Assembly (NCBI GenBank): GCA_019695345.1
Contig: JAIBAE010000047.1
Span: forward strand, 1 to 34,396
DNA: 34,396 bases
Direction: 5' to 3'
From: Bacteroidota bacterium
GTDB taxonomy: Bacteria; Bacteroidota; Ignavibacteria; Kapaibacteriales; NICIL-2
The position numbers and the translations under genes were made by a program. Below the pieces are notes generated by a model that had not been told where the DNA came from, ran no database searches, and saw nothing but the letters and a program-made list of their open reading frames with translations. Of this stretch, positions 6,456-26,840 are shown in pieces. How positions within the stretch are numbered: position 1 is the first letter of the stretch; each line of letters starts with the position of its first letter.

Positions 6456-8428
6456 GGACAATACTATTGTTACTTATGGTTAGTTTGATTTGCTCACAGA
6501 GTGTGTATTCATTTACCATTACTGCCGATTCATCTAAAACATCAGCCGACTCCTTGCTTTCCATTGATAACCAGCCAAAGAAAGATACAACAGTTAAGCT
6601 TCCATTGTTCGAACCGTTGCGTAACCACGGAGCATTGTTTTTATTACCCGATACTTCTGTTGATAGAGTAGAAAAACAGGATTTTCAGTTTTTGAATTAT
6701 ACGGGAATGCTTGATGTAATTGATGCTAAAATTCCGCTGTTCCAATTAACACAGGGGTATTACGGAATGATGTCGAATGTATCGGTGTATGGCGGTTCGG
6801 CAAACGATAATACGTTGATGTTTAACGGTCATTCGGTAAATGATGTACCAACCGGACTGATGTATCTGGAACAATTCCCTGTTGAATTTACCGATGGTGC
6901 AGAAGTAGCAACTGGTATGAATGCAGTTATTCTTGCAGGCTCTGCTTCGGGTGTTGCTACAAATTTGCGTGAAGTGCGATTTAATACTAAAACTCCATTC
7001 ACACGCATCTGGTACACACAAGGTGGGTATGGCTTTGGTGGTTCGAATGGAATTTTATCGCAAAATATTTCTTCCAACATGAATGCAACTGTTGGTTACC
7101 GACGGCTGGGTGCCGATGGAAGATACAGCAACCAATGGCTTGATGCATGGAACGTATACGGATTACTTCGGTGGAATCTAAATGAAAAAACCAATGTATC
7201 GTACACACACATCTTTACGAATTATGCTACCGGACTTAATGGGGGTGTTGACCCAAGAACCACCACAGATATTGGTGACGAAGTTACAGCAAATGTACGT
7301 TATACGGATTTATCGGAACGAATATACAAACACCAAGGTACGTTACTGTTAACTCAAGCGTTAGCCGCCGATTCAACCTCAATCTTTTCTGCTTCGGTGT
7401 ATGGAGAAAATACAATTCACAAAAAGGAAAGAGATACACTGTTGTATTTAAACAACACAGATACTCTGCGTACTGCAACAATTACTAATTATAGGTTTGG
7501 CGGTTCAATACGCTATGACCAAGTTCTGTTGGGTGGGTTGACCTTGAGGGCAGGTGGTAATGCAGAGTTCCGTTCCATCAATACTTCGCAGTACAATGAG
7601 TCCTTTGATGGTTTGGCTCTTACAGGTCATATTTTACTGAACTACGAACTTGATTCACACCTAAAAAGCCGTGTGGGATTACGGTATAACTCAATTGGTC
7701 AGACGGTTGCAATACCAAGTATTGGCGGGGCTTTGGAATTTACGAGTAGTATATTTACCTTGATAGTTGATGCATCGCAGTCAGACCGACTTCCTACAGT
7801 TACAGAAGGATTAGGATTGTTACCCGAACACCATACACTTGCATTTGCCAAGCTACAAGTACATTTACCGGAACAAACTACCACATCTCTCACTGCATTT
7901 GTTCGCTATGTAGATAATCCAATTATTCCAATACCTGAATATGTGGATACTACGTTGTTAGTTAAAAACACAACTTTTAGTAATCAAACTAACAAACAGG
8001 TGTTTGGTGGTATTCTTGAAGCAAATACACTTTGGAACAGTTTTGTGATAAAAGGGAATCTTCTATCAAGCATACAATACATCAATAATCAAAAAGAGCA
8101 ATTGTATCCTGCGTTGTTAGCAAATGTTCAGGCACGATACGAATACAAAACCGGAACAAGTTTACTATATGCAGGAATTTCCCTTCAGGCCAGAACAGGA
8201 TTTCAAGGTGAATGGTTTATTCCTGTTAACTGGAGTTATGCAAAAGCAGATGTAACCAATTCTGCCGCATATAATGGAATTGACTTGCTTACCGGAGCAA
8301 AACTGGGTAATGCCTTTATTAAAGTCACTTTTCAGAATATTTTAGGTACCAGATATACCACTCTCTCAACTTTTCCCCAGAACGACCGAAACTTACGCCT
8401 GAGTGTTGCGTGGTCGTTTTTCGATTAA
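6452..8428 (+). CDS. TonB-dependent receptor-like outer-membrane beta-barrel protein
   Basis: This 658-residue protein starts with a signal peptide (MRTILLLLMVSLICSQSVYS, cleavage near residues 20-24). A plug-like segment follows at about residues 75-180, with VYGGSANDNTLMFNGHSVND resembling the VRG-NDVLLNGIPVND pattern of TonB-dependent receptor plugs, then a GAEVATGMNAVILAGSASGV stretch. The rest is a series of amphipathic strands typical of an outer-membrane barrel. The C-terminus is RLSVAWSFFD, nearly the aromatic terminal strand expected for assembly by BamA. I see no clear TonB box or N-terminal carboxypeptidase-like domain, and the length is short for a SusC protein. The substrate is unknown. 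It is coupled to the membrane protein gene upstream. Confidence 0.8.
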   Translation: MRTILLLLMVSLICSQSVYSFTITADSSKTSADSLLSIDNQPKKDTTVKLPLFEPLRNHGALFLLPDTSVDRVEKQDFQFLNYTGMLDVIDAKIPLFQLTQGYYGMMSNVSVYGGSANDNTLMFNGHSVNDVPTGLMYLEQFPVEFTDGAEVATGMNAVILAGSASGVATNLREVRFNTKTPFTRIWYTQGGYGFGGSNGILSQNISSNMNATVGYRRLGADGRYSNQWLDAWNVYGLLRWNLNEKTNVSYTHIFTNYATGLNGGVDPRTTTDIGDEVTANVRYTDLSERIYKHQGTLLLTQALAADSTSIFSASVYGENTIHKKERDTLLYLNNTDTLRTATITNYRFGGSIRYDQVLLGGLTLRAGGNAEFRSINTSQYNESFDGLALTGHILLNYELDSHLKSRVGLRYNSIGQTVAIPSIGGALEFTSSIFTLIVDASQSDRLPTVTEGLGLLPEHHTLAFAKLQVHLPEQTTTSLTAFVRYVDNPIIPIPEYVDTTLLVKNTTFSNQTNKQVFGGILEANTLWNSFVIKGNLLSSIQYINNQKEQLYPALLANVQARYEYKTGTSLLYAGISLQARTGFQGEWFIPVNWSYAKADVTNSAAYNGIDLLTGAKLGNAFIKVTFQNILGTRYTTLSTFPQNDRNLRLSVAWSFFD

Positions 8429-14371: not shown

Positions 14372-17300
14372 ATGAACTCTTTAAGGATAAGCAAGCGACG
14401 GATCTTCTGCAGTTTGCTTCTTACTGGTTTAGTTACGCTGCTCTGTATTACTGATGCTTTTGCTCAGTCTTACCGTGCAACGTTAAATCAGAGGCGCAGA
14501 GGAGACCAGATTTATGTTGAAGTCTGGATTAAAGCTCTTACTGCAAATGCACCAAAGCTTGGTGAGTCATCTTTGGTCATTCAATATAACGCAGCTCAGT
14601 TGACTCCGGCAGCAACACAAGCTCCAAGTACTACAGATACAGTTCAATATGATGTAGATGTAGCAAATCCGGTACAAACTATAACTTCCCAATTTGATGC
14701 CGCTAACGGTTATCAGAGTTTGGCAAACCAAAGTTATGGCGCAGGGTTGTATTCGCTTGAGGTACGTAAAGTGTTTGGTTCCACAGCGGGTATAGTTCCA
14801 TCAACATCAGGATTAGGTTCTTTTGTTGGTAGAATGATTTTTGATATCAACACAACAGGTTTGACAGATGCTACATTATCGCAAGTTAAATGGAGCACAA
14901 GTACTTTACCCGGCGACATCGTAATTTTTGACTTTAATGAGAATAACATTGAATCGCAAGTTTCATTTGTTGACCCCTCAGACTTTACAATTATTGGTAT
15001 TACAATATTAAATCCAAATGGTCCTTCCGAAGTTGTGGATAGAGACAAAGTGTATGCTTCGGTTGCAAGTGGTTATCCAATTTATTTTGAGCGTAGTGGT
15101 ATTGTAGCTGCAAACGGTTATGGTGTTGCAGGTGCTGCATACGTTTTTGATTATTCTTTAAATGGTGGTTCTTCTTGGACAGAGTTTGGTCGTGCTGCAG
15201 AAGACGGTTCAACAGTAAATGGCGATATACACGCTTCTGCTGTTACTGCTTTTGATGGTACAGCAGCGGCAGCAGATGGTAGACAAATAGTTCGAGTTCG
15301 TTGGGCAGCAAATGCAAACTTTGCAGCTCGTTCGGAAGAAGCTCGTTTACGTATTACGCAGTTAGCAACAGCAGGTGCTATTGCAGGTCGTGCTCGCCAA
15401 ACTCGTTTAGACATGAGTGATGCAAATTTTGCATTAGGACGTTTATTCTTTTCGCAGTTAAATGGAACAAATACATATTTGAAATCTACAGGTGCTTTTA
15501 GTAACTCTACACAGTTAACAGTTAGCGCTTGGGTAAACTTAAATGAATACAAACCAACCGGCTCAACCGTTGGTGTAGTTGCAAGCAGTGGCGGGCCAAC
15601 TGCCGGTAGTGAAGGTGCCTGGATGTTATACTTGAAAGATGGTAAATATCCTGCATTTAGAGCACGTGAAATTTTAGGTCGTGGAACAAATGGTTATATA
15701 GCTGATATCGTTTCACCAATAACATTAAATACTGCATCCGATGCAATTCCATTAGGTCAGTCACACGCAGATAACTGGGTGCATTTAGCAGCTACTGTTG
15801 CTAACAACGTAGTTACATTATATGTTAACGGCGAAATTGTAGATCAAGTTACAAACGACTTGGCAACAAACATTCGTATGCAAACAACCAACCACCCAAT
15901 TTGGGTTGGTGTTAATCCTAACATTAGTATTGATGCAAACAATTATTTACACGCGGGTGTTAAAGGTGTTCAAATATGGAGAACAGCTCTAACACAAACA
16001 CAGATTAGAACAAGAATACCCGGTGTAGTTACACCAAGTACAGTTGGTGCTGTACCAGCAGACCCAACATTTATTAATCGTAGTTTAGAAATTTATTATA
16101 CGTTAGAAGGCACACGCACAGATGCTGCGTCTGATGCTACATATCAATTAGGCGACCAAGCAGGTCAATATTATGTTGATAACGCTATCGCTAATTCATC
16201 AATTCGATTCCGTCCTGATAGACCACACATTAAGTTAACTTCACCAATTGGTTGTGAAGGTGTATCCAATTTGACAGGTATAGACTATAAAGTACGTTGG
16301 GTTGGCTATGGTATAGGCGATATTACTGCAACTGGTGCAGATTTGGATATTCAGTTTAGTACAGATGGTGGTAGCGCATGGACATATGCACGTAATGCAG
16401 GTGGTAATGCAGCTACAAACGACTTAGGTCCGGGTGCAACAGCTGCAGTTGACATTGAAGCTGGTGAAGCAACCTGGAGACCATATAACAACGATAACAC
16501 ATTCACTAATGGTGGTACAGTAGATTTACGAAGCATAGCAAGTGCATATGCAAAGAATACCATATTAAGAATTCGTGGACATGTTGCTGCTGAAAATGAG
16601 ATTTCCTCAACTTCAGAATCATTTATTGTAGCTCCATATTTCAGTTTACACAATCAAACCGGAAACAAATTGGAGATTGCAGGCGGAACATCGTTAAATG
16701 CTGTTGGTCAAACATTTATGGTTGAAGCATGGATTCGCCCATATCGTTTCCCAACACCAAGCGAGTATTCATTCCCAATTATTGCTAAAGTTGATACATC
16801 CACGTTTAAACCTCATTATGCTTTAAACTTGTTATCCACAGGACAACTTCAACTCCAAATAACAGATAATATTGGCAACATACGTACAGCAGTGAGTGAC
16901 GCAGCTAATGCAAACTTAGTAGTTAAACCAAATAGTGTTTCCTTAGATAGCGCATGGACCCATGTTGCAGCTTGGGTAAATATTGGTAATGGTACAGGTG
17001 CATCCGAAGTTCGTTTCTACATTGACGGAACTCCTCAACGTGCGGATAGTATAACTACACAATTAGGTAGTGGTATAACATTAAATTCAACAAACACATA
17101 TCCAGCATACATTGGTTACCAACCAATTAGTACATCAGGTTCACGTTCATTTGAAGGTGAATTGCGTGATATACGTTTTTGGAATGGAACACCTGCAGGT
17201 GCTGCTACCACAGGTAATGAGCCAACTGCATTAACCACACACATACAAGGTGCATTAACAGCTACAGGTTCAACATTAACTGGTGGTTCGGCTACAAACT

Positions 17301-20300
17301 TACAGGTTGCATTTGACTTAAATGGCGGTGCAATCAATACTGCTGGTTATCAAAACTCAATCGTTTCCCAAGTTGGTAATGTTCGTGCTAATATCGCGGG
17401 TACCCCAATTTGTTACTACTCTATCAGACCTTACCTTAAAATGGTAGAACCTGTATTTAACCAGAGAGTACGTAATACTACAACAAATATGAGTGTTCGT
17501 TGGGTTGGATACAACTATAATGGCGGTGCTACAGGTTTTTCCGGTGGTGTTAACGCAGGTGCTACACCTTCGTTAGAATATTCAATACGTGGTGGTGGCG
17601 GTGTTGTAGTGCAACCATATCAATATGTTGGTAGCGACTATTGGGACGTAGCATACACTGATGCTACAGCTTTCCCAGCTGGTTCTAATTTTACTGGTTC
17701 AACAGCAGGTAACATGCGTTTTGGATGTACACTAGATTTATCGTTAACCGATCCTGACTTAAATGATAACGGAACTTACACTGACCAAGGTGCTTTAAGT
17801 GCAACACTTTCGAATGCACGCTTGAGATTGTGGAATTCCGTTACTATAAACACTACAGCCCTAACAATTTCAACAGAGGGACCTATCTTTACTATTACAC
17901 CTCCAAGTAACTTTACATTACGTTTGTTATTAGAAGGTTTGAATGAAGGTTTAGATGGAGTAGGTGCTGTATGGCATAATTTAAGCACAACCTATGCAGG
18001 TGGTGGTATCAGAATTAAGTTGTATCGTAACAATTCTGGTAGCCCTGGACCATTAGTTGCTCAGGCAGAATCGGAGTTCCAGTATGATGCAAACGCGTTC
18101 TCTGCGAGTGCAATTACCAATAAAGGAACTAATACTGGTGACGGACCGCTATTTGCAAATGTTCCATTTGTATTTACAGATTTACCTGATGGCTCTTACT
18201 GGGTAGTGGTAGAAAGTCCAAATCACTTACCAATAATGTCTAAATCTCCCGCAACTTTCTTGTATTCTGGTGACTTGTTAACAACAAGTACTCTTGAATC
18301 CGGTTGGGACTTCTCAACATGGACAGGGGCAGATGATCATGCATCATATTCAGCGTATGGATCTGCAAAATCAACAACATCAAATACGGCTTATTCAACA
18401 ACTGGTTTAATATTCAACGAAGGTCGTGATGGTATTACAGGAACAGCTGCAAACTATATTGCTGGCATGGTAGCCGGAGACTGTGAAAAAGACGGTCAGA
18501 TAAATGCTGCGGATAGAGTAAGAGTACGTGCTGATGCAGGTACAGCTTTAGTTCGCTCTGATGTTGATGGTGATGGTAGTGTTGGTGCTGTTGATCGTAC
18601 ATTAGTAGATCGTAACTTTGGTAAAGTATCATCTATTTATAATGTAACGTTCCCGGGTTCAAGCTTGAACGATGATGGCATGTCAGGAAAAGTTGCTCAA
18701 AATGATGGCAATCCATTTGAAGCTATAAGCAATGAAGACCCAGCGATGTCTAAATTCTTTAATGATGAAGGATTGAAATTTATTGAAAACGGTGCTTCTG
18801 CTGTAACAAGTAAAAAAGGAACCTCACTACAAGGTAGTAAGAACTACAAGTTCACAATAATTGCCGAACCAGTGAAAGTACAGAACTTTGTTGATGTACC
18901 AGTGTATATTAACAATACAGGTGATGTATTCAACATGGGGAATGCAACGTATTCAGTACAGTTTAACCCAAAACGCTTGAAGTTTGTTTCTTTAACTGGT
19001 ACAGATAAAGTTGCATATTCAAATAAACTAGACAAAGGTTATAATGCAATGTATAGTGCACCTAAAAACAATGCTGATTTAGCAATTGAAGGTGTACGAA
19101 CAATCGAAATTGATTACGATGCATTCTCACGTAAAGGTGGAGAGCCAGTTTCAGCAGGTAAATCATATGTAGGTACTTTACGTTTTGAATTACTTGATAA
19201 TGCAGGTTCTGTTAGCTTCAAGTGGTATAAGAATACAGGTGTGATAAGTGCACAAAATGAATTTTTAAGCAGCTTTGCAACATTGGAAGACATCAAACCA
19301 ATTATGATGTATTCTGCTTCAATCGTAAAACCTGCTGTTGGCGAAAAACTTGTTATGAACAAATCTTATCCAATAACATGGACAAGTACCGGTTCATCGA
19401 CAGTATTTGCTGAGTACAGTGTTGATGGCGGCAATACATGGGTAAGAATCAATACTACTGCTATGCCAACAACAGCACTACAGGTTTCGTTTACAACTCC
19501 AAGTAATGCAGCAACCGATTGTTATGTTCGCTTGGTTGATGAAGAAACTGGTGCTGAAGTTTCGCGTAGCAAAAAGTTTGAAATCGTTAATATCAGCGCA
19601 TCAATTACACGTCCAGCAGCAACCGATCCAGTTTATGTTGGTGGTGTTAATGATATTATTCGTTGGGGTTCTGTAGGGTTGGCTAAAGTTCATTTTGAGT
19701 TCTCACCTAACGGTTTGGATACATGGTCACCAGTTGCAACCGTAGTTAACGCTACAAATGGCTCTGTGTCGTGGAAAGTTCCAACTGGTGTTAACTCTAA
19801 ACGTGCTGTTGTTCGCTTAATAGACGAAGAAACACAAACCGAAATCAATCGTACAGCTCCATTCAAAATCTTATCCGGTTCAGTTTCATTATTGAACCCA
19901 AGTAAAGGTGAAGTTGTAAAACCAGCGCAATCACAAAAACTACGTTGGCGCACAGTTAACGATGTGAAAACAATTGAGCTTCAACTCTCAGTTGATGGTG
20001 GTAGCACATGGTCGACATTAGGAATCAATGTTAACGGAACTAAATTAGCATATGACTGGACAGTTCCAAGCATTGCAACCAAACAAGCTGTAATTCGTGC
20101 AATCTATCCAGAAGAAGCAGAACTAGAGTATGCAAGAACACCAATGTTCAGCATTGACGGTCCTGTAGAAGTAGTTGACATTACAGATGGCGACAATACA
20201 TTTAGTAACGTAGCTCCAAACCCAACGTCTGGATATACAGCAGCTACATTTACATTGTCAAATGCTCAGCCTGTGTCGGTAGTTGTGTATAATAACGTTG

Positions 20301-20455
20301 GTGAAATTGTATCAAGATACATGGATAACGTAATCTATGAAGCTGGTACACACACAATGGAAGTATCATTAAATGGTTTACCATCTGGTACATATTATAT
20401 TCAATTCAACGCAGGTCTCCATAAAGAAACGAAAAAGGTAGTTGTATTTAAGTAA
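14372..20455 (+). CDS. Giant secreted modular protein with T9SS type A sorting domain (LamG, Ig-like, dockerin-like, cohesin-like modules)
   Basis: The protein has 2027 residues. A signal peptide (cleavage after AFA, residue 31) is followed by a cohesin-like segment (about 32-205), an Ig-like module (205-350), a LamG/concanavalin-type domain (360-550), a second Ig-like module (618-757), a second LamG (754-943) and a third Ig-like segment (1018-1163). Then come a beta module (PPSNFTLRLLLEGLNEG, 1172-1290), two dockerin-like EF-hand loops (GDCEKDGQINAADR near 1369; SDVDGDGSVGAVDR near 1396), a second cohesin-like domain (1490-1643) and three Ig-like repeats with SVDGGxTW (1648-1930). The C-terminal sorting domain (1945-2027, APNPTSGYTAA to KKVVVFK) directs export by the type IX system and anchoring or release at the surface. 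The ATG at 14372 has GGAGG 4 bases upstream; an in-frame GTG at 14345 is not preferred. It is probably an adhesin or surface-layer protein. Confidence 0.9.
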   Translation: MNSLRISKRRIFCSLLLTGLVTLLCITDAFAQSYRATLNQRRRGDQIYVEVWIKALTANAPKLGESSLVIQYNAAQLTPAATQAPSTTDTVQYDVDVANPVQTITSQFDAANGYQSLANQSYGAGLYSLEVRKVFGSTAGIVPSTSGLGSFVGRMIFDINTTGLTDATLSQVKWSTSTLPGDIVIFDFNENNIESQVSFVDPSDFTIIGITILNPNGPSEVVDRDKVYASVASGYPIYFERSGIVAANGYGVAGAAYVFDYSLNGGSSWTEFGRAAEDGSTVNGDIHASAVTAFDGTAAAADGRQIVRVRWAANANFAARSEEARLRITQLATAGAIAGRARQTRLDMSDANFALGRLFFSQLNGTNTYLKSTGAFSNSTQLTVSAWVNLNEYKPTGSTVGVVASSGGPTAGSEGAWMLYLKDGKYPAFRAREILGRGTNGYIADIVSPITLNTASDAIPLGQSHADNWVHLAATVANNVVTLYVNGEIVDQVTNDLATNIRMQTTNHPIWVGVNPNISIDANNYLHAGVKGVQIWRTALTQTQIRTRIPGVVTPSTVGAVPADPTFINRSLEIYYTLEGTRTDAASDATYQLGDQAGQYYVDNAIANSSIRFRPDRPHIKLTSPIGCEGVSNLTGIDYKVRWVGYGIGDITATGADLDIQFSTDGGSAWTYARNAGGNAATNDLGPGATAAVDIEAGEATWRPYNNDNTFTNGGTVDLRSIASAYAKNTILRIRGHVAAENEISSTSESFIVAPYFSLHNQTGNKLEIAGGTSLNAVGQTFMVEAWIRPYRFPTPSEYSFPIIAKVDTSTFKPHYALNLLSTGQLQLQITDNIGNIRTAVSDAANANLVVKPNSVSLDSAWTHVAAWVNIGNGTGASEVRFYIDGTPQRADSITTQLGSGITLNSTNTYPAYIGYQPISTSGSRSFEGELRDIRFWNGTPAGAATTGNEPTALTTHIQGALTATGSTLTGGSATNLQVAFDLNGGAINTAGYQNSIVSQVGNVRANIAGTPICYYSIRPYLKMVEPVFNQRVRNTTTNMSVRWVGYNYNGGATGFSGGVNAGATPSLEYSIRGGGGVVVQPYQYVGSDYWDVAYTDATAFPAGSNFTGSTAGNMRFGCTLDLSLTDPDLNDNGTYTDQGALSATLSNARLRLWNSVTINTTALTISTEGPIFTITPPSNFTLRLLLEGLNEGLDGVGAVWHNLSTTYAGGGIRIKLYRNNSGSPGPLVAQAESEFQYDANAFSASAITNKGTNTGDGPLFANVPFVFTDLPDGSYWVVVESPNHLPIMSKSPATFLYSGDLLTTSTLESGWDFSTWTGADDHASYSAYGSAKSTTSNTAYSTTGLIFNEGRDGITGTAANYIAGMVAGDCEKDGQINAADRVRVRADAGTALVRSDVDGDGSVGAVDRTLVDRNFGKVSSIYNVTFPGSSLNDDGMSGKVAQNDGNPFEAISNEDPAMSKFFNDEGLKFIENGASAVTSKKGTSLQGSKNYKFTIIAEPVKVQNFVDVPVYINNTGDVFNMGNATYSVQFNPKRLKFVSLTGTDKVAYSNKLDKGYNAMYSAPKNNADLAIEGVRTIEIDYDAFSRKGGEPVSAGKSYVGTLRFELLDNAGSVSFKWYKNTGVISAQNEFLSSFATLEDIKPIMMYSASIVKPAVGEKLVMNKSYPITWTSTGSSTVFAEYSVDGGNTWVRINTTAMPTTALQVSFTTPSNAATDCYVRLVDEETGAEVSRSKKFEIVNISASITRPAATDPVYVGGVNDIIRWGSVGLAKVHFEFSPNGLDTWSPVATVVNATNGSVSWKVPTGVNSKRAVVRLIDEETQTEINRTAPFKILSGSVSLLNPSKGEVVKPAQSQKLRWRTVNDVKTIELQLSVDGGSTWSTLGINVNGTKLAYDWTVPSIATKQAVIRAIYPEEAELEYARTPMFSIDGPVEVVDITDGDNTFSNVAPNPTSGYTAATFTLSNAQPVSVVVYNNVGEIVSRYMDNVIYEAGTHTMEVSLNGLPSGTYYIQFNAGLHKETKKVVVFK

Positions 20456-22526: not shown

Positions 22527-22949
22527 ATGAAAACAGTTCCTACTCCCAAACTGTATTATTCAATAAAACAAGTAGGGGAAATGTTCGATGAGGAACAGCA
22601 TATCTTACGTTATTGGGAACGTGAGTTTGATATGTTGAAACCTCAGAAAAACAGGGCCGGAAACCGTGTGTACACCGAGAAAGACTTACGTGTTCTTAGA
22701 GTAATTAAAAAATTACTTCGGCAAGATAGGTTGAGTGTTACACAGGCTAAAGCCAAGTTAGAGCATGGCATACCAACTGATTTAGAGAATGTAGCATCAG
22801 ATGAAGTAACCTATTCTTTGCCTGGTGTAGCTATATCTGTCCAAAAGAACGATTCAATTTCTAAGGATATGGTATCAATTCCTAAATCTGATATAAAAGA
22901 TTTGTTAGCATTATTGCAGGAGTTATCAACATTGATAACTAAGATTTAA
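22527..22949 (+). CDS. MerR-family transcriptional regulator
   Basis: This 140-residue protein has an N-terminal MerR winged helix-turn-helix: YYSIKQVGEMFDEEQHILRYWEREF followed by RAGNRVYTEKDLRVLRVIKKLLR and SVTQAKAKLEHG (residues 10-80). The usual MerR opening (IGEVA..GVSxxTLRYYE) is altered to one with ILRYWE, as in the HspR-like/CarA-type and Bacteroidota members. The C-terminal 60 residues are short, with a predicted helix at the end (DIKDLLALLQELSTLI) that could form a dimer coiled coil; no metal-binding cysteines are present. The regulated gene is unknown. The WD40 gene begins 65 bases downstream and could be on the same transcript. Confidence 0.9.
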   Translation: MKTVPTPKLYYSIKQVGEMFDEEQHILRYWEREFDMLKPQKNRAGNRVYTEKDLRVLRVIKKLLRQDRLSVTQAKAKLEHGIPTDLENVASDEVTYSLPGVAISVQKNDSISKDMVSIPKSDIKDLLALLQELSTLITKI

Positions 22950-23014
22950 TTAGGGGAAGTAGTTAAACTTGATTACTAAATACAATTTGAATTAATTCAC
23001 GTTACGGAGAGTAT

Positions 23015-24055
23015 ATGCGGCAATTATTTTTTATGCGGAGCATAACAACAGTTGCGGTAGTGTTTTTATGGTGTGTAAATATGTTTGCACAGTATAATTA
23101 TACTATGACAACAATTGGTAAACACAACGATGAGGTTTTAGGTGTGTTTGTTAACGAGGCAAATTCACGTTTTGCTACCTGTAGTGTTGACGAAACTATC
23201 AAAATCTGGAGTTTACCCGAATGTAAGGAAATTAAAACTTTAACCGGACACTTGGGACAGGTAAATAATGTTTCATTTTCTGGTGATGATAAATCTTTAG
23301 CTAGTGCCAGTAGTGATGGTACTGTTAGAGTTTGGAATGTAGAATCTGGTGCTTGTACTGCAATATTGAAAGGTCATACTGCAGAGGTGAGTGGTGTTTA
23401 TTATTCACAAAAGGATAATAGCTCGTTCATTGCCTCTAGCTCCTTTGATAAGACTGTGAAACTGTGGGATGTTAACCTACTTTCAGAGATTAAAACACTT
23501 CGCGGTCATACTGCCGCTGTTAATGGTATTGCATATAGTTATGATGGGAAATATTTGGCATCATGTGGTGATGATCATCAAATACGTGTTTGGTCAACAG
23601 ATTTAGACAAAAAAGAACCCATTATAATACCTACTGGATCACAACATCAAGCACCTGTATTAAGTTGTTTATTTTCATTTGATAATAAATATCTTGTATC
23701 ATGTGATAAAGATGGAGTTATAAAAATTTGGCAAATGTTTGATGGCCAGTTAATCAGAACTATAAATGCACACGAAGATTTAATTCAGGATTTTACTTTT
23801 ATGGGTGATAATAAAACACTTGTAAGTGTTAGTCTTGATAAAACTGTTAAAATTTGGGATATACTCACCGGCGAAAAGTTATGGGAGATGAAAGTAGATT
23901 CCGAAATTTGGGGCGTTGATGTTACATCAGATGGTGGAATGATTATCTTAGGTTGTGCGGATGGTACCGTAAGAATGTTACGTAATTCAAATCTTAAAGG
24001 TGGCGCAAATACACCATCTAATAATGGCGGTAAGAAGGGTGGAAAGGGCAAATGA
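23015..24055 (+). CDS. Exported WD40 beta-propeller protein (PorE-like propeller part)
   Basis: The 346-residue protein has a signal peptide (MRQLFFMRSITTVAVVFLWCVNMFAQ) and about seven WD40 repeats, each closing with a WD-like dipeptide: IKIWSL, VRVWNV, VKLWDV, IRVWST, IKIWQM, VKIWDI and VRMLRN. So nearly the whole mature chain is one propeller. The C-terminus is a glycine/lysine tail, NNGGKKGGKGK. The ATG at 23015 has GGAGAG just upstream. Its stop overlaps the start of the next gene (ATGA at 24052). Exported WD40 domains are unusual; in the T9SS component PorE such a propeller is joined to CRD and OmpA-C domains, which here are encoded by the next two genes. Role in T9SS is therefore inferred from domain content and linkage only. 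Confidence 0.88.
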   Translation: MRQLFFMRSITTVAVVFLWCVNMFAQYNYTMTTIGKHNDEVLGVFVNEANSRFATCSVDETIKIWSLPECKEIKTLTGHLGQVNNVSFSGDDKSLASASSDGTVRVWNVESGACTAILKGHTAEVSGVYYSQKDNSSFIASSSFDKTVKLWDVNLLSEIKTLRGHTAAVNGIAYSYDGKYLASCGDDHQIRVWSTDLDKKEPIIIPTGSQHQAPVLSCLFSFDNKYLVSCDKDGVIKIWQMFDGQLIRTINAHEDLIQDFTFMGDNKTLVSVSLDKTVKIWDILTGEKLWEMKVDSEIWGVDVTSDGGMIILGCADGTVRMLRNSNLKGGANTPSNNGGKKGGKGK

Positions 24056-24468
24056 GAATAATTCCTTTGTTCTTACTGTTGATGCTTTCATTACCCTTGG
24101 CTAATTTACAAGCAAACATCAAAATTGATCCGTTGGTATTACTTCGCGGTAATGTGAAGGATAATAACAAGGGTGTTGCTGTTGATATGCAGTTTAAAGA
24201 CGAGTCCGGAGCTATTGTAAAAAGTAAAAGTGCTTCTGATGGTACATATCAGGCTATACTAAAGCCAGGGCATAAGTATCAGTTAACTATTACAGATGAA
24301 AATCTTACAAGGTATACTTTTACATATGAAGTTCCGAACTATGATAAATACACACAACTAGATCAAGATTTCCCGTTAAATGCTACAAAAGTTGATACTC
24401 CCGTAGCAACTGAAAGCCCAAAAAAATCAAAGAAGAATAAATCAAAAAAAACCAAGAAAGGTAAATAG
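24052..24468 (+). CDS. Small exported carboxypeptidase-regulatory-like (CRD) protein with lysine tail
   Basis: The 138-residue protein has a signal peptide (MRIIPLFLLLMLSLPLANLQA). A single beta-sandwich follows at about residues 28-105, with the CarboxypepD_reg-like pattern LLRGNVKDNNKGVAVDMQF, then DGTYQAILKPGHKYQLTI. This is the fold often found attached to OmpA-like and TonB-dependent proteins in Bacteroidota. The last 20 residues are almost all Lys, Ser and Asn (SPKKSKKNKSKKTKKGK), a strongly basic tail. It overlaps the WD40 gene by four bases and is followed by the next gene one base after its stop, so the three are translationally coupled. No function can be read directly; the arrangement suggests a subunit with its neighbours. 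Confidence 0.8.
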   Translation: MRIIPLFLLLMLSLPLANLQANIKIDPLVLLRGNVKDNNKGVAVDMQFKDESGAIVKSKSASDGTYQAILKPGHKYQLTITDENLTRYTFTYEVPNYDKYTQLDQDFPLNATKVDTPVATESPKKSKKNKSKKTKKGK

Positions 24469-24469
24469 T

Positions 24470-25180
24470 ATGAAAAACATAACAAGCATAGTATTTTTTG
24501 CTTTCTGTTTAATGCTATCATTAACACATGGCAACGCCCAGATAGGAACCAAGATAGCAGTAACCGGAACAGTTCTTGATGAAGTTTCAAGAGCACCTGT
24601 TACACTACCTATTGTTGCTTATGATGAGTCCGGTAAAAAAATCAATAGTACCAGAAGTAATGAAAAAGAGGGCGGGTATTATTATTTATTGTTAGATCCG
24701 GGTATGAAATATCGCGTTGAATTTGATCATCCTAATTACTTCCGTGAAGAACGTTGGGTAGAAACACCAAAAAGTGGTAAGTATGCTGAGATATCACGCG
24801 ATTGGTTGGTTCGTCCAATGCGTGAGGGCGCTAGAATTCCATTGGCAGTTTCACCATTTGAATATAAAAAGTCCAAGTTACGTCTGGGCGCTGAAGAGTA
24901 TTTAGCTGCAGTGCGGACGGCATTAGTTAAAAACCCAAGTGTTAAAGTAGAAATTCAGTCGTATCCAGACTTGGCAGATAATAAAGATGCTAATTTGAAG
25001 TTAACGACCGACAGAGTTGCTGCAATGAAAGACTATTTGGTTCAAGGTGGAGTAACTGCTGATAGAATTACTGTTAAGTCATCTGCCGATATTGACCCGT
25101 TAAACCCACTACCGATCAGAAAAAGTGCTAAAGGTAAAAGATATGTTGGTAATACTTATATTGTTGTTACCAAAATCTAA
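24470..25180 (+). CDS. Exported CRD plus OmpA-C-like protein (PorE-like C-terminal part)
   Basis: The 236-residue protein has a signal peptide (cleavage near GNA-Q, residue 23). A CRD-like beta-sandwich covers about 28-115 (VTGTVLDEVSRAPV, then GGYYYLLLDPGMKYRVEF). An OmpA-C-like domain covers about 125-236, with VKVEIQSYPDLADN and then NLKLTTDRVAAMKDYLVQGGV, matching the family pattern NxxLSxxRAxxVxxYL..GV. The Arg used for diaminopimelate binding is kept; the GHTD aspartate appears as YPDLAD. It probably binds peptidoglycan noncovalently. In PorE of the T9SS the order is TPR, WD40, CRD, OmpA-C in one chain; this gene gives the last two. A terminator follows. Confidence 0.82.
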   Translation: MKNITSIVFFAFCLMLSLTHGNAQIGTKIAVTGTVLDEVSRAPVTLPIVAYDESGKKINSTRSNEKEGGYYYLLLDPGMKYRVEFDHPNYFREERWVETPKSGKYAEISRDWLVRPMREGARIPLAVSPFEYKKSKLRLGAEEYLAAVRTALVKNPSVKVEIQSYPDLADNKDANLKLTTDRVAAMKDYLVQGGVTADRITVKSSADIDPLNPLPIRKSAKGKRYVGNTYIVVTKI

Positions 25181-25271: not shown

Positions 25272-26840
25272 ATGTCATCGCGCAGAGATTTTCTTAAAAC
25301 AGTAATATTGAGTTCCGGTGCCGTGTTCTCGGGATTGCCTTTAGGTTGCGGTGACAGTAAAGTGAAACCAAATCAAGATTTTCAGAAGTTAGTTGCTACC
25401 ATACCCGAACTATCTCAACGTTCATTGTTATTCGAACGTGCTCACAAATTCCTCCGTGAAAGTAAAAATGTAAGTATAACACCCGGTAATACAATTGAGT
25501 GTGATGTTGTAATTGTTGGCGGTGGTCCTTCCGGATTAACTGCAGCTATGTACTTGATAAAATGCGGATATAAAGTAATTGTGGTAGAAAACGAAGAACG
25601 GGCCGGAGGTGCTGCTATTAGTGGTAAATACAAAGATATTGCTTTTCCTCTTGCCTCAATTTACTTTGTAGATTTTAATCAAACTATTAAAGAACTTTGT
25701 GAATATGCTCAGGTTACTCCTGTTCAGGCACCTGTTGATGGATTGTTGTACAGGGGTAATAAATATATAGATCACTGGAAAGATTCTGTGTTAACTACTC
25801 TTCCCTTACAACAAAAAGAAAAAGATAGCTTAAAGCAGTTTAGAGATGATATCTTAAAAATAAAAGAATTACCATTATACCCACTTCCGGATAGGCTTAC
25901 TAAAGATAATATAGCATTAGATGCAATGTCAGTGAGAGAATACTGTCTAAAGTATAAGTCTGAGTTTCTTAATCAATTCGTGAATCTTTATACCCGTTCT
26001 TCAATGGGAGGAAGTATAGATGAAACAAATGCCTATTGCTTTCTTAACTTCTATGCCAGCGAAATAGGAATGGATGTAAAAACACCCCGTTATACTTTCT
26101 ATGGCGGATTGAATGGCATTACTGGCGCATTGGCCCGTAAGATAGGTAATCAACACTTCTTGTATGGTAATTTGTGTCTTCATCTGGAGAATACATCTTC
26201 AGGAGTTTCCGCATTAACAGTAGATGTAAATGAACATGTTGCAAAGATTAATGCAAAGTTTGCAGTTGTAGCAAGTCAAAAGTTTATGATACCTTCTCTT
26301 ATTCCTTCTCTGCCAGATGAGCAAAAACAAGCTATGCGTCAGATACGTTATTCGCCGTATCTTACTGTTCATCTTTGTGCCGATAATGATATTCTAGGTG
26401 ATAGTGTTTTTGATACATGGTTATTTGACTCACCACTTTTAGGTACAGATATTATTGACCCTCAATCGGTTGGGCAAAAGTCTACGCAAGGTGCTTTTGT
26501 TGCTAGTGTGTATAGCCCCAGGCCTCATAATGAACGTGGTGCATTGCAAAGTAGCGAAGTTGTTGCCAGTTTAAGCAGAAAAATTGCGGATAATGTAACA
26601 AGTCAATTAGGTAAAGGTGCTAAAGAAGCTGTTAAAGAAATTCAATCGTTTGCATGGGGACATAGTTTAGTTACAGCTGCACCAAAGTCGCATAATGGTA
26701 TAGCACAGACAGCCAGAAAAACATTCAAGAATATTCATTTTGCTAATACCGATAATGACTGTTCACCTGCATTTGAGAATGCTGTGCAACACGGACAACT
26801 TGCTGCTGAAGCCATCATTTCTAAGTTGAAAAATAGATAG
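25272..26840 (+). CDS. Tat-exported putative lipoprotein FAD/NAD(P)-binding oxidoreductase
   Basis: The 522-residue protein starts MSSRRDFLKT, a twin-arginine signal (SRRDFLK), and then has LPLGC with Cys26 as lipobox cysteine. It should therefore be folded with its flavin, exported by Tat, and probably lipid-anchored. The mature part opens with the FAD-binding motif VVIVGGGPSGLTAAMYLIKCG (about residues 79-99) and VVENEERAGGAA, characteristic of the amine oxidase/phytoene-desaturase-like group. The C-terminus has the second FAD motif NIHFANTDND...AFENAVQHGQLAAEAII, as in amine oxidases. The substrate is unknown. It is not in the same transcript as the upstream genes (terminator at 25194). 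Confidence 0.86.
   Translation: MSSRRDFLKTVILSSGAVFSGLPLGCGDSKVKPNQDFQKLVATIPELSQRSLLFERAHKFLRESKNVSITPGNTIECDVVIVGGGPSGLTAAMYLIKCGYKVIVVENEERAGGAAISGKYKDIAFPLASIYFVDFNQTIKELCEYAQVTPVQAPVDGLLYRGNKYIDHWKDSVLTTLPLQQKEKDSLKQFRDDILKIKELPLYPLPDRLTKDNIALDAMSVREYCLKYKSEFLNQFVNLYTRSSMGGSIDETNAYCFLNFYASEIGMDVKTPRYTFYGGLNGITGALARKIGNQHFLYGNLCLHLENTSSGVSALTVDVNEHVAKINAKFAVVASQKFMIPSLIPSLPDEQKQAMRQIRYSPYLTVHLCADNDILGDSVFDTWLFDSPLLGTDIIDPQSVGQKSTQGAFVASVYSPRPHNERGALQSSEVVASLSRKIADNVTSQLGKGAKEAVKEIQSFAWGHSLVTAAPKSHNGIAQTARKTFKNIHFANTDNDCSPAFENAVQHGQLAAEAIISKLKNR

What the first reader, a model, noticed from the sequence alone, without database searches (positions are those of the whole stretch)
22950..25180. 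Split PorE-like module: separate WD40, CRD and CRD-OmpA-C genes, translationally coupled
The three genes (ATGA overlap, then 1-base gap) encode an exported propeller, a CRD and a CRD plus OmpA-C-like domain. These are three of the four domain types found in one chain in the T9SS protein PorE of Porphyromonas (TPR-WD40-CRD-OmpA-C). A T9SS cargo gene (14372-20455) is 2.6 kb away. A peptidoglycan-bound complex built from separate polypeptides would be a new form of this component. No TPR domain is in the group, and I know of no experimental description of this layout.
Basis: partly seen in the sequence, partly recalled or inferred. Interest (0 to 1): 0.72.

Follow-up and report, generated by a model that had tools for sequence, protein, structure and literature searches.

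The report
Periplasmic WD40 and peptidoglycan-binding gene pair
Two neighbouring genes for an exported WD40 propeller and a small protein that should grip the cell wall are inherited together across an uncultured bacterial order (Kapabacteriales); here an extra copied domain sits between them, and the set looks like a separate cell-wall-tethered complex, not a replacement for the secretion-system protein PorE.

Summary
Three co-directional genes encode an exported 7-repeat WD40 protein (23015-24055), a lone CRD (24052-24468, ATGA overlap) and a CRD+OmpA-C protein (24470-25180, 1-base gap). AlphaFold2 plus structure searches confirm the CRD and OmpA-C folds, and the PorE peptidoglycan ligands Asp/Asn/Arg are kept at identical spacing. 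The reading "split PorE" is only partly supported. The same genome encodes several fused propeller-CRD-OmpA proteins. The propeller is WD40 (PF00400), not the PD40 type of PorE. There is no TPR and no lipobox. All 61 genomes examined in the order have SprA, but 19 lack this module. What is conserved is a two-gene unit, WD40 + CRD-OmpA: 41 of 61 genomes have both genes adjacent, and 19 have neither (one more has an assembly gap at the site). It was not found outside the order in samples of 197 class and 395 phylum genomes. The separate middle CRD occurs only in the window's own family, as a paralogue of the CRD of the OmpA protein. Best explanation: a lineage-specific periplasmic WD40 scaffold tethered to peptidoglycan by its CRD-OmpA partner, like TolB-Pal or PorE in layout but a member of neither. 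Complex formation and function are inferred.

The parts
23015..24055 (+). Exported 7-repeat WD40 beta-propeller protein, Lys/Gly-rich basic C-terminal tail (KKGGKGK)
   Evidence: ORF, N-terminal signal-like segment read from sequence; PF00400, 7 stretches, E 9.8e-60; 42-62% identity to 24 orthologues; basic C-termini in orthologues
24052..24468 (+). Lone CRD (transthyretin-like) protein with N-terminal signal-like segment and Lys-rich tail; family-specific paralogue of the CRD of the next gene
   Evidence: ATGA overlap; alignment with the CRD of gene 3; model, Z 10.4 to 5aq0; present only in the window's family
24470..25180 (+). CRD + OmpA-C peptidoglycan-binding protein, exported, no lipobox seen
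   Evidence: PF00691 E 2.8e-8; model pLDDT 90.5; OmpA-C Z 12.8 to PorE 6TOP; CRD Z 12.1 to 5aq0; D167/N175/R182 at the spacing of PorE D576/N584/R591
22527..22949 (+). MerR-type regulator gene, frequent upstream neighbour (25 of 29 larger WD40/CRD-OmpA loci), also present in genomes without the module
   Evidence: PF13411 E 1.6e-17; synteny; present in 17 of the 19 genomes without the module, plus the one with the assembly gap
25272..26840 (+). Twin-arginine-signal FAD amine-oxidoreductase-like protein, neighbour in several families but not strictly co-inherited
   Evidence: PF01593; adjacent in part of the loci; 25 of 61 genomes, with and without the module

Best explanation
The conserved unit is a two-gene periplasmic module: an exported WD40 propeller and a CRD-OmpA-C protein that binds the diaminopimelate stem of peptidoglycan. 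Shown: domain make-up, folds (predicted), retained ligand-binding residues, tight gene order, joint presence and absence. Inferred: the CRD-OmpA protein is the wall anchor, the WD40 protein docks on its CRD half and offers its surface as a scaffold for a further envelope partner, so the two form a complex between outer membrane and wall. In the window's family the CRD has been duplicated as a separate gene between the two, probably a third subunit of the same complex. It is specific to the order Kapabacteriales and dispensable; it is not the core PorE of the type IX secretion system.
For: All 41 genomes with the CRD-OmpA protein (E <= 5e-33; next best match 4e-19) have the WD40 gene directly upstream. 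In 49 of 58 non-redundant loci the two are overlapping or within 20 nt; in the window's family the extra CRD gene lies between them. The 20 genomes without it have no WD40 orthologue; the single hit is 35% identical inside a 979-aa frame. The joint absences fall in at least four lineages (families f5, f7, genome G032, and G041/G046, whose genus mates keep it). WD40 and CRD-OmpA distances correlate (r 0.75). Gene 3 model and PDB matches. Asp/Asn/Arg ligands in 33, 34 and 35 of 35 rows, PorE ligands from PMC7192894. SprA in 61/61, fused PorE-like proteins in 61/61.
Against: No interaction was tested; no complex could be predicted with the tools. Some genomes carry an additional CRD-OmpA copy without WD40 (L132, L136, L137), so the wall-binding protein can stand alone. 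No regulator or enzyme neighbour is strictly linked. Distance correlation partly reflects shared ancestry. The Asn ligand is lost in the window's family mates and in family f2.
Confidence: 0.62

Rival explanations
1. Split PorE: the genes encode the T9SS component PorE as separate subunits, anchoring the secretion machine to the wall.
For: CRD and OmpA-C folds as in PorE, peptidoglycan ligands at PorE spacing, T9SS present (SprA), T9SS cargo gene 2.6 kb away.
Against: Fused propeller-CRD-OmpA proteins in the same genome and in all 61 genomes; WD40 not PD40, no match of the WD40 protein to the PorE model; no TPR, no lipobox; 19 genomes with SprA lack it; no T9SS machinery gene recognised beside it.
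Confidence: 0.12
2. TolB-Pal-like tether: the WD40 protein plays the part of TolB and the CRD-OmpA protein that of Pal, stabilising the outer membrane.
For: Same plan (separate propeller and OmpA-C wall binder in adjacent genes); Pal is among the best structural matches; TolB_N was found in none of 61 genomes of the order.
Against: No TolB N-terminal domain, WD40 rather than PD40 repeats, no Pal lipid anchor seen, no TolAQR recognised beside it in the window; 19 genomes have neither TolB_N nor this pair.
Confidence: 0.2
3. The genes are neighbours without a shared function; the order is kept by chance or by regional constraint.
For: MerR and housekeeping neighbours are also kept in the window's own family.
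Against: Pair kept together while flanks change across families, and lost together in at least four lineages.
Confidence: 0.06

Closest known systems
PorE (PG1058) of the Porphyromonas gingivalis T9SS
   Same: Propeller, CRD and OmpA-C peptidoglycan-binding parts; Asp/Asn/Arg ligand set and spacing (PMC7192894)
   Different: Separate polypeptides; WD40 PF00400 with 7 repeats instead of PD40 PF07676 with five blades (PMC5053529); no TPR; no lipobox; present in only part of the SprA-bearing genomes
CHU_0125 family and other fused PD40-CRD-OmpA proteins of Bacteroidota
   Same: OmpA-C half (NF053607 E 3e-7 on gene 3)
   Different: Single chain; such proteins coexist with this module in the same genome
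TolB-Pal
   Same: Periplasmic propeller and OmpA-C wall binder from separate neighbouring genes
   Different: No TolB_N domain, no Pal lipid anchor seen, extra CRD, no TolAQR recognised nearby

Membership tests
PorE (T9SS) | Single chain TPR-propeller-CRD-OmpA_C | tested here: not met
   Three separate ORFs; no TPR among the Pfam hits shown for the three proteins at E up to 1
PorE (T9SS) | PD40-type (PF07676) beta-propeller | tested here: not met
   PF00400 WD40 with 7 stretches; the NCBIfam PorE model does not match the WD40 protein at E <= 0.01
PorE (T9SS) | CRD fold | tested here: met
   Z 12.1 (gene 3) and 10.4 (gene 2) to 5aq0
PorE (T9SS) | OmpA_C domain with mDAP-binding Asp, Asn, Arg | tested here: met
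   6TOP Z 12.8, rmsd 2.9, 119 residues; D167/N175/R182
PorE (T9SS) | Lipoprotein of the outer membrane | tested here: not met
   No lipobox in the N-termini of window genes 1 and 3 by a simple pattern scan; localisation itself untested
PorE (T9SS) | Occurs wherever the T9SS occurs | tested here: not met
   SprA in 61/61, module in 41/61
PorE (T9SS) | Needed for T9SS secretion | not testable with these tools
   Needs a mutant
TolB-Pal | TolB N-terminal domain (PF04052) on the propeller protein | tested here: not met
   No TolB_N in any genome of the order searched, own genome included
TolB-Pal | OmpA-C peptidoglycan binder | tested here: met
   Pal structures Z about 13
TolB-Pal | Propeller binds the OmpA-C protein | not testable with these tools
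   No complex prediction available

The most novel reading that the evidence does not exclude
The WD40/CRD-OmpA pair is an undescribed wall-tethered envelope complex of Kapabacteriales that takes a TolB-Pal-like role in an order without TolB_N proteins, with the CRD duplicated into a third subunit in one family.
Probability: 0.2. Interest if true: 0.62.

Novelty: new variant of a known kind. Interest (0 to 1): 0.42.

Why it matters
From my own knowledge, exported WD40 proteins in bacteria mostly have no assigned partner. Here one is tied by gene order and joint inheritance to a specific peptidoglycan-binding protein across a whole order, which makes a testable two- or three-subunit envelope complex. 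It also warns against reading any propeller/CRD/OmpA set as PorE: these genomes carry several such proteins, fused and unfused.

Tried and rejected
GldM model search (TIGR03517) rang nowhere, controls included, so it says nothing. The FAD oxidoreductase was tested as a further member and rejected for patchy co-occurrence. MerR was tested as a member: conserved neighbour but kept in genomes without the pair. G002, apparently negative, is an assembly gap: MerR ends contig C455 and the FAD gene begins contig C280. Paper searches found no description of this gene pair in the open-access library held. A TPR in the fused proteins was looked for with Pfam and not found; weak TPRs are not excluded.

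Full report
OBSERVATION. The three ORFs are present at the stated coordinates: WD40 23015-24055, CRD 24052-24468 (start inside the ATGA of the previous stop) and CRD-OmpA 24470-25180 after one base. Pfam gives seven WD40 repeats for the first and OmpA for the third, while the CRD is below cut-off by sequence in both. A 35-sequence alignment gave a model of the third protein with pLDDT 90.5. Its C-terminal half matches OmpA-C domains (PorE 6TOP_B Z 12.8, 119 residues, rmsd 2.9; Pal 1oap Z 13.1) and residues 29-118 match the transthyretin-like domain of carboxypeptidase D (5aq0, Z 12.1, rmsd 1.6). The lone CRD gave pLDDT above 90 over most of its core and Z 10.4 to 5aq0.

PEPTIDOGLYCAN SITE. In PorE the side chains Asp576, Asn584 and Arg591 hold the stem peptide (PMC7192894). 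The window protein has D167, N175 and R182, at the same spacing of 8 and 15. Across 35 sequences these are D in 33, N in 34 and R in 35. In a second set of 24, D and R are invariant but N is lost in the window's family mates and in family f2. Binding is therefore likely but untested.

WHAT IS CONSERVED. Among 61 genomes of the order, 41 (own included) have a full-length CRD-OmpA orthologue, with a sharp score gap (5e-33 against 4e-19). All 41 have the WD40 gene directly upstream. In 58 non-redundant loci, 49 have the two genes overlapping or within 20 nt. The separate middle CRD occurs only in the window's own family (G000, G001, G003-G007); everywhere else the CRD query matches only the CRD half of the OmpA protein. 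Alignment shows both CRDs share their pattern, so I read the middle gene as a tandem duplicate.

CO-INHERITANCE. The 20 genomes without the CRD-OmpA gene have no WD40 orthologue either. One of them, G002, is an assembly gap: MerR sits at the end of one contig and the downstream FAD gene at the start of another. The other 19 fall in at least four lineages, including two genomes of a genus whose other members keep the pair; in those two, MerR is followed by a gene that reads as EF-P in one of them (my reading). WD40 sequences are more conserved (mean identity 0.61) than the CRD-OmpA proteins (0.40), and their distances correlate (r 0.75), which shared ancestry alone could give.

DISTRIBUTION. 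The profile found orthologues only in the order, in samples of 197 genomes of the class and 395 of the phylum; outside it only the CRD-OmpA part of longer, apparently fused proteins matched. Named hits are mostly Candidatus Kapaibacterium, Kapabacteria and Ignavibacteria MAGs, so the order is most likely Kapabacteriales; this naming is inferred from the record titles.

IS IT PorE? The genome holds at least four fused propeller-CRD-OmpA proteins (the CRD of two of them is read from sequence or from the family models). Two match the NCBIfam PorE model with 243 and 193 bits, below its strict cut-off of 600. P. gingivalis PorE has a PD40 propeller and TPRs, and multiple homologues per species are known (PMC5053529). 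All 61 genomes have SprA and fused PorE-like proteins whether or not they have this module. The module is therefore neither a substitute for a missing fused protein nor found wherever the T9SS occurs. A T9SS-related accessory role is not excluded.

IS IT TolB-Pal? The layout is alike, and TolB_N is absent from all 61 genomes (the same search rang in E. coli and two other control genomes). But the domains and anchors differ, and 19 genomes have neither. I keep this as a rival for function, not membership.

MECHANISM. Both main proteins start with signal-peptide-like segments and lack a lipobox by a simple scan, so I place them in the periplasm. The CRD-OmpA protein is the wall anchor; the WD40 propeller most likely docks on it and recruits a further envelope protein; the lone CRD may be a third subunit. 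Gene order and joint loss are shown; docking, partner and function are inferred.

LIMITS. About 72 kb of one contig of the own genome is withheld and unread. No complex modelling was available. The GldM search was uninformative. Only one T9SS marker (SprA) was usable. Counts of genomes and lineages come from one genome per species and are not independent of phylogeny.

Noticed in passing
G000 contig C58, about 8000-80000 (L214-L217): A reported 24,401-aa open frame is an artefact: 72,000 bases read N (withheld), so this part of the genome could not be searched.
   Followed up: yes
G000 contigs C55, C148, C141, C10, C36, C33, C128, C132, C69, C5, C126, C116, C156, C11, C27: Many 640-800 aa open frames with two OmpA-family matches about 600 bases apart; an expanded double-OmpA family in this genome.
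   Followed up: no
L132, L136, L137 (also L179, with a second CRD-like protein at 6693-7391): Extra CRD-OmpA paralogues without a WD40 neighbour in some genomes of family f3 and in one other Kapaibacterium.
   Followed up: partly
window 25272-26840: Twin-arginine-type signal followed by a Cys in a lipobox-like context (LPLGCG) in an FAD amine-oxidoreductase-like protein; adjacent to the module in several families but with patchy co-occurrence.
   Followed up: partly
window 14372-20455: 2027-aa T9SS cargo with laminin-G-like domains and a weak dockerin-like match (PF00404, E 9e-4, below cut-off).
   Followed up: no
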